From Synergistaceae bacterium (lineage in GTDB: Bacteria > Synergistota > Synergistia > Synergistales > Aminobacteriaceae): a stretch of DNA of 64,000 nt. Location: NCBI GenBank assembly GCA_017451025.1, contig JAFSSM010000051.1, positions 1-64,000 on the forward strand, given 5' to 3'. The notes beneath the pieces are model-generated. The model searched no databases and was not told the DNA's origin. It saw nothing but the letters and a program-made list of their open reading frames with translations. The stretch's first letter is position 1; each line of letters begins with the position of its first letter. Shown here one piece after another: positions 21,739 to 32,215 of this stretch. The position numbers were made by a program, and so were the translations under genes.

Positions 21739-22573
21739 TCAATCCGAACGCAACATGACCCAGTTCTTGGGAAAACTGCGGGATTTATTTTGTGCTATGC
21801 GGTCGGGCCGCCATTTTTGAGGATAGATTACTATTTTGGAAGGGTTGGGGTTAAGCCAGGCTCCCCAAGTTGAAAAGGTACTGTTTGCCATGATGTTATG
21901 CTTGCAGCAGCTCATGAACTGCATATCGAAAGCGTCGCCGCCTTCAGGACAATCAATGAATCTTAGTCCCCCCCCCCCCTAAGGTATTTCTGCAGAAGTC
22001 TATATCGTCAGACACGCAGAAGAATTTTGCGTCGGGGACCCGTTCCTGAATGTAGCGCATTGCTCTGCGGTAATAAGACTCCGGCAGAAGATACCAGCCC
22101 AACCCCACATAATCCCCGCGTCTGACATGAAGGCACACAGAGTTGCAGCTTCTTGCTTCGTCGAGAAGGTCGTTGCATTCTTGAGGAAGCGGACGCTTGA
22201 ACGTGAACTCTTTGCGCAGAATTTCCTCCATGCCTGTGAAGTACTTGAAGCTGCCCCAATAACCATTGAGGATTGCGTGCCTGAAGTTCAGGACTTCGGG
22301 ACAGAAGCCGCGTTCAACGTAGTTAGGCATAAGGCGGAGCTTTCGCATTGCTCTGGCGATGAACCATCCGGTTTTGCCGAGCACGCGTTCCCTGATGTTG
22401 AACAGAGTGTGAAGCTGGTATATTCTGGCCGGGATAATCGGGTGATTCTGATGCTCATAGAACGATAAATTCATCCAGACATTGCGCCCGCGTTCCAGAA
22501 GGGTCCTGTACATTGAGTAGCCGTACATCTGGTTTCCCAGTCCTCCGACAATGTTGACTATAATCAAAAACAA
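21739..22573 (-). CDS. GT11 family (alpha-1,2-fucosyltransferase-like) glycosyltransferase, out of frame at a poly-G tract
   Basis: The N-terminal part (22573 to the tract) has the GT11 start VNIVGGLGNQMYGYSMYRTL and the donor-binding CLHVRRGDYVG near residue 150. After TLGGGG the present frame stops (TKIH, stop at 21953). In the frame reached by removing one C from the 12-base tract (21968-21979) the protein continues LRFIDCPEGGDAFDMQFMSC and then KHNIMANSTFSTWGAWLN, the conserved GT11 C-terminal motif, and ends at 21739. So C11 or C14 gives the full enzyme (about 277 residues) and C12 a truncated one. Start is TTG at 22573 or 22567. Likely decorates LPS or another surface glycan. Confidence 0.85.
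21968..21979. repeat. C12 (G12 on minus strand) tract inside GT11 gene
   Basis: Twelve C on the plus strand at the exact point where the two GT11 half-frames must be joined by a shift of minus one (or plus two) base. Confidence 0.9.
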
Positions 22574-24039: not shown

Positions 24040-24258
24040 GCTCCTTCAAGGTAATGATAACAGCATGGCAGAATGATTTGCAAAGGAGAGTGATTGAACA
24101 ACGGCGATTGAGGATATTGATGTGGGCAAAGATGAACGCTTAATCCTCCTCTCGCCAGAATAGGGGGCAGTGCAAACTTCCAAGAACTACTGATTTTGCC
24201 TATGTTAAAATGTTCAGTGCTTGACGAGCAAAATTCATAATGGAAAGGCAGGATAATA

Positions 24259-25367
24259 ATGCAGAGCTTGAGAAGTCTTTTGCAGCTTGACAGAGACAAA
24301 CAGCGGTTGCCGATTACTGAGCAGCTGAAGCGGGACGGCCTTCCAGTTGTCATGTGGGGAGCCGGAAATGTAGGGCACAGCGTCAAAGCCATTCTGGAGA
24401 ATGCCGGTGTTAAGTTAAACGGCATATGGGTTGACGGCGAACACCCTGACAATATGGACGGTATACCCATCAGGAGCTATGAGCAGACAGCAGATACATT
24501 CGGCAAATTCAACGTAGTATGCGGGCATTCCAGATATGACATTGTGGCCGAAGCAGAGAGAAGCCGCCCCAAGATCAACAAGATATACTGCTTCAGCAAT
24601 GTAGTGTACGGACAATTCGAAGGTATCTCATCGGATTTTATAGAGGAGCACTTCGGCGAATACGAGGAAGCCTTCAATCTCCTTGAGGACGATTTTTCGA
24701 GGAAATGTTTCGCTGCTTACCTCAACTGCAGGAACAACGACGACTATACTTTTCTTCTGCCCTATTACGTAAATACTGTAGGGGGGGGGGGGGGAGAAAG
24801 TATTTCGTTAATCCCTTCTTCACTGTAGGCGGCCAGGAAGTATATTTAGACGTTGGAGCATATGACGGTGATACGGTCAGGGAATTTCTCAATGCTTCAA
24901 ACGGAAAGTACCGCAAGATTCTGGCATTAGAACCTGCAAAAGGTAACTTCGAGGCTCTCAAAAAATACGTTGAGGACAGCAAGCTCCCGAATATTGAGAT
25001 ATTCAGGAACGGATGCGGCGACAAAAACGGAGTTGCACACTTAGCTTCCGGACTCTTTAAAGAAAGTTTCAGCGTTGGCGACAGTGCTTCAGGTGATGCA
25101 ATCGAAATAAAGCGCATTGATGACCAGTTCGCCGCCGAAGAAATAACGCTCATCAAGATAAGTCTCCTCGCTGGTGTAGTAGAGACACTCAGAGGCGCGG
25201 AGAAAACACTTCAGCAAAAACACCCTAATCTGGTAATAACAGTAGGCTTCAATGCAAGAGGCATTATAGACATTCCCAAGACAATTAAGGAGCTAAATCC
25301 GAACATAAAATTGTCGTTGAGGTATGCTTACCACATGCCGGCCCGGTTAATTCTGTACGGATATTAG
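24259..25367 (+). CDS. FkbM family SAM-dependent methyltransferase with N-terminal domain, out of frame at a poly-G tract
   Basis: ATG at 24259 follows AGGA. Residues 1-170 form an N-terminal domain with a Rossmann-like start (LPVVMWGAGNVGHSVKAILE). At 24781-24794 lies a 14-base G run; the present frame then stops at 24828 (GGGGGESISLIPSSL). In the next frame, reached with G15 or G12, it continues GRKYFVNPFFTVGGQEVYLD, then VGAYDGDTVREFLNAS (SAM motif I) and LALEPAKGNFEALKKYV (motif II) to a stop at 25367, giving about 370 residues. FkbM enzymes O-methylate sugars or polyketides; with GT11 and MATE nearby a surface-glycan substrate is likely. The present tract length predicts no methyltransferase domain. 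Confidence 0.85.
24781..24794. repeat. G14 tract inside FkbM gene
   Basis: Fourteen G codon-aligned as glycine repeats between VNTV and RKYF; changing the length by +1 or -2 fuses the two halves of the methyltransferase. Confidence 0.92.
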
Positions 25368-29090: not shown

Positions 29091-30452
29091 TCACACAGGC
29101 AGTAATTCTACGTCATGTTCAAGCTCATCAAGTGCAGATATTGTATTTTCGAGCCGTGTTAGTTCCTTGCGTTCAAAAGTCTTCCATAAGAGAAAGTGTT
29201 TATCAAGCAATGCCCATTTCAGTGCGTGAAATCCATTCCAGATAAGACCCATCCACGCCGCATAATTCAGATTCAGGATGTCATTAGTTACGCAGATTTT
29301 CCCTGCATTCATTGCGCACAAAACACCGTAAGAAGCTGCCGTAATCATCCTAAACTTTTTGTGCATATTTCCCGGAGCTGTCTGTGATAATGCCGTCCAT
29401 AACGTTTTGCCCTCAAGGTTCACGCCTTTGATGACCCAGCAGGCGCGCAAAAGAACTTCCATTATTGCGACAGGCACTGACGAGACGACGAACTGCCGCA
29501 TATCGTAGCCGTTGAGGTACATGTACTCAATATTTGTGCCGACGCTTTCACCGTTGATATTCACGCCTCGAAGCATAGTCAGCAGTCCCATGAACGGAGC
29601 AGGCAGTCCCATTCCCCTGTTGCCGGCCGCAGAAGGAGCATTAACATCCGACGCAAGATGACCGCACATTCTGCCCAGAGCATAAAATACATTTTCGTTG
29701 AAGTCGTTAGCATGAACAGAGTTATACGACGTGATTTTTCCGTTCTCTATAATTGTGCAGGAATTATTCATCATGTCATACACTCCGAATATGAAGCCGA
29801 GTACGGGATCATGTGATAACTCTTTCAGCCTGTGATTGTAGGGGCTTAATTTTCCCGAATACGATAACAATCTACCCTTCATGCTTGTATCTGCCGAACC
29901 TATCTTGAAACTTTCGCTAAGCTCATGGCTCAAATCCGGCGGCAATATCTTATTGAATGCACTCTGCACGGAACGGTTGAATACGCCGTCAAGAGGAGTA
30001 TCGAATTTCGCAGATGTTGACCTCACAGGGGATTTCACGCACATGAAATCAAGCATTCCCGCAACAAGGCCGCAAGTTCCGGCAATCGCATAGTCCCAAC
30101 CATCAAGCGAATATTCCCTGTTGAACTCCTCGATGTGCTGTGCAACCCGAGAATCTACTTCTTTGATGTCATCTTCTGTCAGAATGTCGTTGATAGTTAC
30201 TGTGCGTTTTATGCTCTGTTCTGCCTCGCGCGAAATTTCCTCGAATGTCTTGCGTTCAAGCGGCACTCTTTCGGGAGTAACGCTTCTCTCATGCTCAAGG
30301 GCTGACTGGTATTCTCCTTCATCAAAGGCACCGAGAGACATCAATTTACGTTTCAGCTCATCAATGCCTCTCCCGATGTCATCATGTGCATTCTGTGTTT
30401 CTTCGGCCATGTCCTGAATATATTTCACGGCCTTAATCTGCTTCCCGAACAT
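29091..30452 (-). CDS. Unrecognised 453-residue protein with several hydrophobic segments
   Basis: I do not recognise a family. The N-terminal 130 residues are charged and helical (VKYIQDMAEETQNAHDDIGR onward), followed by a glycine-rich hydrophobic stretch (WDYAIAGTCGLVAGMLDFMC, about 140-160) reminiscent of a membrane or membrane-proximal helix. The middle is mixed; the C-terminal half has further hydrophobic helices (VVSSVPVAIMEVLLRACWVI; NLNYAAWMGLIWNGFHALKW) and ends in a coiled-coil-like segment. It follows the next gene upstream by four bases and both share the poly-C promoter, so they form one unit. Confidence 0.6.
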   Translation of the reverse strand: MFGKQIKAVKYIQDMAEETQNAHDDIGRGIDELKRKLMSLGAFDEGEYQSALEHERSVTPERVPLERKTFEEISREAEQSIKRTVTINDILTEDDIKEVDSRVAQHIEEFNREYSLDGWDYAIAGTCGLVAGMLDFMCVKSPVRSTSAKFDTPLDGVFNRSVQSAFNKILPPDLSHELSESFKIGSADTSMKGRLLSYSGKLSPYNHRLKELSHDPVLGFIFGVYDMMNNSCTIIENGKITSYNSVHANDFNENVFYALGRMCGHLASDVNAPSAAGNRGMGLPAPFMGLLTMLRGVNINGESVGTNIEYMYLNGYDMRQFVVSSVPVAIMEVLLRACWVIKGVNLEGKTLWTALSQTAPGNMHKKFRMITAASYGVLCAMNAGKICVTNDILNLNYAAWMGLIWNGFHALKWALLDKHFLLWKTFERKELTRLENTISALDELEHDVELLPV

Positions 30453-30456
30453 GACG

Positions 30457-30903
30457 CTAGAGTTTGCGTTTCTTCGTCAGCAATGCATCAACGAGTGCGT
30501 TCAACGCTCCGAGTTCTTCACGGTAATGGTTAGCGTTTTCCTGCAAGCGTCTCTGTATCGTGTAGAGCTTCTCGATCGCGACGTTCAGGGCCGCCAGCAT
30601 ACGGGACTTCTTGCGTCTGTTAGCGAGTGCATACCCGCCAATACCAAGAAGCGCAATCGGAGCCGCAAGTACCCCTATTCCCGCAACCATTCCTCCGCCG
30701 ACGAGTGCTCCTGCTGTGGCAAGCCCGGAAGTTATGCCCGCCGCCGACAGTCCTGCATATCCCAAAGATGACAATGCCGCAAGTGCTCCTGCTCCGCCGA
30801 TGCCCGAACCGATTAACGCGCCGAGTCCTTCAGTTACACCGGGTGCATCATCCTCAAGCTGTTTCATGATGTTTTTGATTTCGTTTCCGACTTGTGCATC
30901 CAT
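30457..30903 (-). CDS. Unrecognised 148-residue glycine-zipper membrane protein
   Basis: ATG at 30903 behind AAGGAGG. Residues 1-25 are polar; about 25-110 form Gly/Ala-rich hydrophobic helices with glycine-zipper spacing (GLGALIGSGIGGAGALAAL, ATAGALVGGGMVAGIGVLAA), followed by a basic RRKKSR and a coiled coil (LNVAIEKLYTIQRRLQENAN). Such features occur in pore-forming or membrane-anchoring proteins. First gene of a two-gene unit with 29091-30452, controlled by a promoter with a homopolymer spacer. Confidence 0.65.
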   Translation of the reverse strand: MDAQVGNEIKNIMKQLEDDAPGVTEGLGALIGSGIGGAGALAALSSLGYAGLSAAGITSGLATAGALVGGGMVAGIGVLAAPIALLGIGGYALANRRKKSRMLAALNVAIEKLYTIQRRLQENANHYREELGALNALVDALLTKKRKL

Positions 30904-30935
30904 CTAATAACAGCCTCCTTAAACAAATTTCCGTT

Positions 30936-30968
30936 ATTTTAGCGTAAGGGGGGGGGGGGGCATGTCAA
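30936..30968 (-). promoter_or_regulatory. Candidate phase-variable promoter with poly-C spacer
   Basis: On the minus strand: perfect -35 TTGACA (30968-30963), then TG, thirteen C, TTACGC, then -10 TAAAAT (30941-30936). The spacer is 21 bases, four longer than optimal; nine C would give 17. The start codon is 33 bases further on. A terminator lies just upstream, so this is the only visible promoter for the unit. Confidence 0.75.
30948..30960. repeat. G13 tract (C13 on minus strand) in promoter spacer
   Basis: Thirteen G on the plus strand lying between the -35 and -10 elements of the promoter for the minus-strand unit. Confidence 0.92.
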
Positions 30969-31007
30969 GAAAAAAGCACCCTCTTCCACACAAGAAAGGG
31001 TGCTTAT
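30969..31007 (-). terminator. Terminator of the gene ending at 31016
   Basis: Minus strand: AAGCACCCT/AGGGTGCTT stem followed by TTTTC, immediately before the TTGACA of the next unit. Confidence 0.85.
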
Positions 31008-31015
31008 GCTGGAGA

Positions 31016-32215
31016 TTATATCACGAAGTTTTTTGCGCGTTCAAGCATTTTTTCGCGGTCAAGAGCCTTCACGTTCTTCACGATCCATTCACGCATATCC
31101 TGACCTTCCGGCGTATCCTGCGATGCCGACAAGAACTCAAGCTCAATACCCAAACCTTCCGCCACATCGTGCGCAATCACCGGCCACACCTTCCCGATGT
31201 CCCCGACAATCGGAATACTCCCCTCATGGCGGGCAAATGCACTCATCTCCATTCGGAACGGAATCTTTGCGGCCTTCGTCTTAGGAAGTCCCTTATCGAT
31301 TGCTTCCTGCACAGTCTGGTTAAGCTCGACGGCCTTCCGCAGATTCTCGTCCAGGTCAATCCGGATTAAGCTCTTCTCGCGGAGGTTGTAGGTGTTCTGA
31401 CCGCTCCACCAAGCCCAGATACCGTGCCCCGTGTAGCATTCAAACGGCCCGTCGTGGATTTCCTGAGTGAGTGCAACCGCCGACTCGATAATCACATCGC
31501 ACGAGGCAAGCATCCTCGAAATTCTCATTGAGCGTTGCGATACAGGAATTGAGTCGCCGATCGACATTCCTACTGCTCCGCCGCCTACAAGCTGAGGTAT
31601 CGTTACGAGCACAGGAATGTTTTTGCGGGCAGCAGCACCCAGCATTGTGTGTTCATCGCAGCCCCAGCCCGCCACCGTCTCGAACGGCAGGCCGTACATT
31701 CTCGCCAGGCCAAGCACCTCGTGAGCTAGCCTCTCTGTCCTCAGTCCCATAGGGTAGGCCATGTTTCCGGCGGCCTTGATGATCTCGTTGACGTGGGGCA
31801 GAGCTTCTCCGCGAGCAAGCAGTTCGTCGTCAAGGGGCATTTCGCGTTTCAGAGCAGTAATTTCCTCGTCGCTAAGGCACGTGAACTCGAACACATCCCC
31901 GCGCGGCATTTTTCCCTTGTCCATTCCGAGAGCGTCAGAATCAACACGAAAAACCCTGTCCAGAGATCCCGCCATCTCGTGCGCAATTACCGCCGAACTT
32001 GTGGAAACTGCATCAACTATCCCCGCGCGAATCAGCTCCGCAATCAGCGTCGTAACTCCCTCGTGAATGTTGGGGCCTGAGCCAGTTACGACCATTACGC
32101 GGCCTCCGCGCTTCTTCACTTCTATGATTCTCTGAACGGCAGAAGCCAGTCCGTCCCGTGAACGTTCATCGAGTGATGCCCGGAAATTTCCGAGCTGTGG
32201 TAGTCCGAATAACAT
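31016..32215 (-). CDS. Deoxyhypusine-synthase-like protein of unknown function
   Basis: 399 residues, soluble. I cannot assign it firmly. A Rossmann-like first part (GGRVMVVTGSGPNIHEGVTT) leads to AGIVDAVSTSSAVIAHEMAG, similar in layout to the 'G-x-VD-x-x-V-T-T...HD' region of deoxyhypusine synthase-like enzymes, then GWGCDEHTMLGAAARKNIPV and VGGGAVGMSIGDSIP (glycine-rich, NAD-binding-like). No eIF5A substrate exists in bacteria, so a different amine or NAD-dependent reaction would be expected. It has its own terminator and lies downstream of the hydrogenase module, with a terminator between. Confidence 0.45.
   Translation of the reverse strand: MLFGLPQLGNFRASLDERSRDGLASAVQRIIEVKKRGGRVMVVTGSGPNIHEGVTTLIAELIRAGIVDAVSTSSAVIAHEMAGSLDRVFRVDSDALGMDKGKMPRGDVFEFTCLSDEEITALKREMPLDDELLARGEALPHVNEIIKAAGNMAYPMGLRTERLAHEVLGLARMYGLPFETVAGWGCDEHTMLGAAARKNIPVLVTIPQLVGGGAVGMSIGDSIPVSQRSMRISRMLASCDVIIESAVALTQEIHDGPFECYTGHGIWAWWSGQNTYNLREKSLIRIDLDENLRKAVELNQTVQEAIDKGLPKTKAAKIPFRMEMSAFARHEGSIPIVGDIGKVWPVIAHDVAEGLGIELEFLSASQDTPEGQDMREWIVKNVKALDREKMLERAKNFVI

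What the first reader, a model, noticed from the sequence alone, without database searches (positions are those of the whole stretch)
30930..30970. Promoter with a 13-C tract as its -35/-10 spacer
TTGACA and TAAAAT are separated by 21 bases, 13 of which are C. Nine C would give the optimal 17. Length slippage would thus tune transcription of the two-gene unit, like Neisseria porA/opc promoters. A terminator immediately upstream isolates it, so it is the sole visible promoter.
Basis: partly seen in the sequence, partly recalled or inferred. Interest (0 to 1): 0.8.

Follow-up and report, generated by a model that had tools for sequence, protein, structure and literature searches.

The report
Slippable poly-C promoter of defence-like genes
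A run of 13 C's really does sit inside the promoter of a two-gene unit that resembles half of the Bunzi anti-phage system, and related gut bacteria carry dozens of promoters of the same design, whose overall length centres on 20 bases rather than the usual 16-18.

Summary
In detail: minus strand 30968-30936 reads TTGACA-TG-C13-TTACGC-TAAAAT, spacer 21. It is a real promoter, not a chance match. In four related species the same two-gene unit keeps TTGACA and TAAAAT unchanged while the spacer diverges. Three of the four carry a C10-C13 tract; the fourth has an interrupted C-rich spacer. The organism is a Fretibacterium-like Synergistaceae with 56 C tracts of 9 or more.

Forty-five promoters of this design were found in the genus (29 families). 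Their spacers centre on 20 (15 of 29 family representatives; about 83% at 19-21). Tract-less TTGACA/TATAAT promoters of the same genus sit at 16-18. Total spacer length is tighter than random pairing of tract and non-tract lengths, and promoters with interrupted tracts also sit at 19-20. By this rule twelve C, not nine, is the expected working length.

The unit encodes a glycine-rich 148-aa protein and a BnzB homologue (PADLOC E 3e-55), without a recognisable BnzA. More distant BnzB units also have a C tract just upstream.

Switching within a population and the effect of length on expression could not be tested. I call this a new variant of porA-type promoter phase variation.

The parts
30963..30968 (-). 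-35 hexamer TTGACA
   Evidence: invariant in five orthologous loci
30948..30960 (-). C13 tract inside the -35/-10 spacer
   Evidence: orthologues have C13, C10, C11 and one interrupted C-rich spacer
30942..30962 (-). whole spacer, 21 bases (TG-C13-TTACGC)
   Evidence: orthologues 21, 22, 20, 19
30936..30941 (-). -10 hexamer TAAAAT
   Evidence: invariant in five orthologous loci
30457..30903 (-). first gene, 148 aa, glycine-rich, probably membrane-associated; weak match to the C-terminal part of BnzA (E 0.0096)
   Evidence: orthologues 75-84% identical
29091..30452 (-). second gene, 453 aa, BnzB homologue (PADLOC PDLC03834, E 2.9e-55)
   Evidence: orthologues 79-81% identical
30970..31005 (-). 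hairpin plus U-run (intrinsic-terminator-like), directly upstream of the -35; kept in all five genomes although the upstream gene differs
31015..31044 (-). second promoter-like sequence upstream of the hairpin: TTGAAC-18-TATAAT with TG; TGATATAAT conserved in five genomes

Best explanation
This is a sigma-70-type promoter for a two-gene, BnzB-containing, probably defence-related unit. Its -35/-10 spacer holds a slippable C tract, so gain or loss of C during replication changes the spacer length and hence the transcription of both genes in a heritable but reversible way. It is one member of a genus-wide set of such promoters. In that set the total spacer length, not the tract length, is held near 20 bases, so the favoured state here is most likely about 12 C (the window has 13, one step away), with longer or shorter tracts weaker. 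Shown: the promoter, its conservation, the tract, the genus-wide set and the 20-base preference. Inferred: slippage in living populations, the effect on transcription, 20 being the well-expressed state, and a role in phage defence.
For: Orthologous loci in G032, G030, G003 and G065 keep TTGACA and TAAAAT while the spacer sequence diverges (C13, C10, C11, interrupted; totals 21, 22, 20, 19). Pattern search in 43 same-genus genomes: hits in 20, giving 45 distinct tract promoters against about 7 reversed-control matches; nearly none in other genera. Spacer distribution: 15 of 29 family representatives at exactly 20, about 83% at 19-21; tract-less TTGACA/TATAAT promoters 67 of 102 at 16-18 and 2 at 20; one representative per family, 25 of 27 versus 9 of 80 at 19 or more, Fisher P about 1e-14. 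Total length varies less than random pairing of tract and non-tract lengths (permutation P about 0.001 after one-per-family choice). Interrupted tracts, which should slip little, also show 20, 20, 19, 20 and 19 in G065. Ribosome-binding site and start codon follow at about 30 bases. BnzB match E 2.9e-55; distant BnzB units also have C8-C13 upstream.
Against: No reads from one population were available, so length variation is shown only between species. No expression data. In E. coli spacers of 20-23 are suboptimal (PMC8695583) and Neisseria porA, with a poly-G spacer, is best at 17 (PMC7864442), so 20 could be a mostly-off state. A crude helix estimate shows that A-like geometry could absorb much of the extra length but not the extra twist. 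Many of the genomes are fragmented metagenome assemblies, in which homopolymer lengths can be wrong by a base.
Confidence: 0.62

Rival explanations
1. Standby-off model: 17 is the optimum as in porA, and 20-21 is the nearest fully silent length. Most cells keep the costly genes off, and loss of 3-4 C switches them on.
For: E. coli data on spacer length and porA; many genes behind these promoters are small glycine-zipper or membrane proteins that may be costly; G-tract promoters show a minor group at 15-16 besides the main one at 19-20.
Against: Off states of 21-25 should be as common as 20, yet the peak is sharp; promoters with interrupted tracts, which can hardly slip back, keep intact hexamers at 19-20; hardly any C-tract promoter is at 16-18 (3 of 29 families at 18 or less).
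Confidence: 0.25
2. Static architecture: the C-rich spacer is a structural promoter element (stiff, A-like DNA or a binding site for a regulator) with a fixed 20-base length; slippage is incidental.
For: Interrupted C-rich spacers keep the length; total length is constrained.
Against: Long perfect C tracts are kept in most cases and the genome is full of out-of-frame coding tracts typical of phase variation; tract lengths at orthologous loci differ.
Confidence: 0.1
3. Chance: TTGACA and TAAAAT happen to flank a C tract that has no promoter role.
For: The genome has 56 tracts of 9 or more C, so some will lie near hexamer-like sequence.
Against: Invariant hexamers in five species with a divergent spacer; strong excess over the reversed pattern in the genus.
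Confidence: 0.03

Closest known systems
Neisseria porA and fetA (frpB) promoters
   Same: A G or C homopolymer lies between -35 and -10; length changes alter spacer length and transcription (PMC2791445, PMC5320596).
   Different: porA is best at 17 (PMC7864442); here the set centres on 20. Those are outer-membrane proteins of a pathogen; here a BnzB-type unit in a gut/rumen Synergistaceae, and dozens of such promoters across the genus.
Neisseria opc promoter
   Same: A C tract covering the -35 region upstream of the -10 controls transcription (PMC7864442); the distant BnzB units (L135, L136, L139, L140) look like this, with no TTGACA.
   Different: The window promoter has a full TTGACA, so it is of the porA type, not the opc type.
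Bunzi anti-phage system (BnzA + BnzB)
   Same: The second gene is a BnzB homologue over most of its length.
   Different: The partner is a 148-aa glycine-rich protein, not the 544-position BnzA; no TerB domain was found.
Poly-G/C contingency loci of Campylobacter and Helicobacter
   Same: Many G/C tracts genome-wide, most inside genes and often out of frame.
   Different: Here a DNA motif (TTACGTA) stands at a nearly fixed distance from many tracts; I know of no such flank in those genera (own knowledge).

Membership tests
porA-type spacer-length phase variation | homopolymer between genuine -35 and -10 elements | tested here: met
porA-type spacer-length phase variation | tract length differs between strains or species at the same promoter | tested here: met
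   C13, C13, C10, C11, interrupted in five species; within one population not testable
porA-type spacer-length phase variation | optimum near 17 bases | tested here: inconclusive
   comparative data centre on 20 rather than 17; expression not measured
porA-type spacer-length phase variation | expression depends on tract length | not testable with these tools
   needs reporters or RNA-seq
Bunzi defence system | BnzB protein | tested here: met
   PADLOC PDLC03834 E 2.9e-55, residues 55-412
Bunzi defence system | BnzA partner; TerB-type domain in the system | tested here: not met
   148-aa partner with a weak C-terminal match only; no TerB in Pfam scan; no BnzA found in the genome (though that search rang in no control genome either); TerB link of Bunzi from PMC10952713
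Bunzi defence system | protection against phage | not testable with these tools
   needs a plaque assay in a laboratory strain

The most novel reading that the evidence does not exclude
A genus-wide class of sigma-70 promoters in which a G/C homopolymer spacer shifts the working -35/-10 distance from 16-18 to about 20 bases, giving a length-tunable family of promoters that governs defence-like and membrane-active genes.
Probability: 0.4. Interest if true: 0.75.

Novelty: new variant of a known kind. Interest (0 to 1): 0.6.

Why it matters
Promoter-spacer phase variation is best known from a few Neisseria genes. Here it appears as a genus-wide device in gut and rumen Synergistaceae, with about 29 promoter families, one of them driving a BnzB-type unit, so a defence-like system may be switched stochastically in sub-populations. 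The consistent 20-base spacer makes an old question directly testable: does the sequence of the spacer change the length that RNA polymerase prefers?

Tried and rejected
Considered whether TAAAAT is only part of the TTACGTA motif found beside many tracts: rejected for this locus, because in the orthologues TAAAAT stays while the rest of the flank changes. Considered translational control: the tract lies outside any gene. The 'terminator of the upstream gene' reading was weakened, because hairpin and TGATATAAT travel with the downstream unit while the upstream gene differs. An AlphaFold2 model of the 453-aa protein failed (mean pLDDT 34.6, four sequences) and was not used. The scan of genome contigs gave three named relatives only. 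A phage-record search found nothing. Van der Ende 1995 was not held; it and Warne & deHaseth 1993 are known to me here only through other papers. My own table lists L109 twice (46 rows for 45 promoters) and gives L093 a wrong spacer; one search corrects both. A search of papers for phase variation in Fretibacterium found none.

Full report
Observation. The minus strand from 30968 to 30936 reads TTGACATGCCCCCCCCCCCCCTTACGCTAAAAT: TTGACA, a 21-base spacer with 13 C, TAAAAT. After the -10 come 32 bases with a ribosome-binding site and the ATG of a 148-aa gene, followed by a 453-aa gene.

Is it a promoter? The 453-aa protein has orthologues 79-81% identical in four same-genus genomes. Aligning the upstream regions gives TTGACA and TAAAAT unchanged in all five. 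The spacer diverges: TG-C13-TTACGC (21), G-C13-TCCCTGT (21), GA-C10-TCCTTTGTTG (22), GAAT-C11-TATTG (20) and, in G065, the interrupted GATCACCCCTCCTCTGTTG (19). Conserved hexamers round a freely changing spacer are the mark of a working promoter; a long C tract is kept in four of five.

The genome. The window lies in a 2.35-Mb genome whose relatives are Synergistaceae and uncultured Fretibacterium from goat reticulum and other sources. It has 63 C tracts of at least 8 and 56 of at least 9, with mode 12. Most lie in genes with G on the coding strand, and most of those are out of frame. This is a contingency-locus genome; all 37 same-genus genomes counted carry at least two such tracts, some more than 50.

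A class of promoters. TTGAC-(1-10)-C8-(1-22)-TANNNT matched in 20 of 43 same-genus genomes, far above the reversed control, and almost never in other genera of the order. Reading the flanks gave 45 distinct tract promoters in 29 families by downstream protein and DNA similarity. The spacer was not fixed by the search (about 9-39 allowed), yet one representative per family gives 11, 16 and 18 once each, 19 four times, 20 fifteen times, 21 five times, 23 and 25 once each. Tract-less TTGACA/TATAAT promoters from five genomes of the genus give 16-18 in 67 of 102 and 20 in two. With one representative per family, 25 of 27 versus 9 of 80 have 19 or more. Tract length (8-15) and non-tract length compensate each other (r = -0.60), and total length varies less than under random pairing (P about 0.001 with families thinned). 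Tracts broken by another base still give 20, 20, 19, 20. G tracts in the other orientation give mostly 19-20 with a few at 15-16.

Reading. What seems to be selected is a total spacer of about 20. The proposal that nine C (17) is optimal therefore has no comparative support; twelve C is the better guess and the window (13 C, 21 bases) is one step away. Two readings remain. Either 20 is the working distance for G/C-homopolymer spacers, or 20 is the nearest silent length, a standby state. The sharp peak and the interrupted tracts favour the first; E. coli data (20-23 suboptimal) and porA (best at 17) favour the second. Crude geometry says that A-like DNA could absorb much of the extra length but not the twist, so I give no physical mechanism with confidence.

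What it drives. The 453-aa protein matches PADLOC BnzB with E 2.9e-55. Bunzi is a two-gene anti-phage system, BnzA and BnzB, in which a TerB domain has been noted. The partner here is a 148-aa glycine-rich protein with only a weak match to the C-terminal part of BnzA, so I call the unit BnzB-type, not Bunzi. More distant BnzB units in G010, G032, G030 and G004 again have a glycine-rich gene in front and a C10-C13 tract just upstream of it, without TTGACA, the tract covering the -35 position as in opc. Other tract promoters precede glycine-zipper proteins, a DUF697-like family, a LeoA/LeoBC-like GTPase, an LRAT protein and glycosyltransferase-like proteins.

Upstream hairpin. The hairpin with U-run folds stably in all five genomes. 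With TGATATAAT before it, it is conserved although the upstream gene is different (a deoxyhypusine-synthase-like gene in two, a PgpA-like gene, named by eye, in three). So it belongs to the downstream unit. The TGATATAAT may start a short RNA ending at the hairpin; this is inference.

Limits. No reads from one population, no expression data, many fragmented metagenome assemblies, no usable structure. Slippage, its effect and the defence role are inferred from established knowledge of homopolymer tracts and from homology.

Noticed in passing
window 24766-24794 and many coding tracts of the genome (L009-L063): A DNA motif, TTACGTA (often as an imperfect inverted repeat TACGYAA-w-TTACGTA), stands about 7-11 bases after the 3' end of the C tract: 45 matches in 16 genomes against 1 for the reversed pattern. 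It occurs in and out of genes and in different reading frames, so it is a DNA-level feature. It looks like the site of a dimeric protein next to slippable tracts; unexplained.
   Followed up: partly
window 24258-25367: An FkbM-type methyltransferase gene split by a G14 tract (24781-24794) into two overlapping frames, i.e. a phase-variable gene presently out of frame.
   Followed up: partly
window 21952-22573 (tract 21968-21979) and 1-287 (tract 43-57): Two further long tracts in the window: C12 (G on the coding strand of a minus-strand gene) and C15 near the window start.
   Followed up: no
L135, L136, L139, L140 (and L138): Distant BnzB-type units with a C tract over the -35 position and no TTGACA (opc-like), in contrast to the porA-like window promoter. 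One more unit (L137) has no tract.
   Followed up: partly
window 30970-31044: A conserved extended -10 (TGATATAAT) directly before a terminator-like hairpin could give a short RNA of about 40 bases that travels with the BnzB-type unit.
   Followed up: partly
G048 (other family of the order): One 1.8-Mb genome of the same order has 165 C tracts of 8 or more, far more than any other genome in the list, yet no tract promoter of this kind.
   Followed up: no
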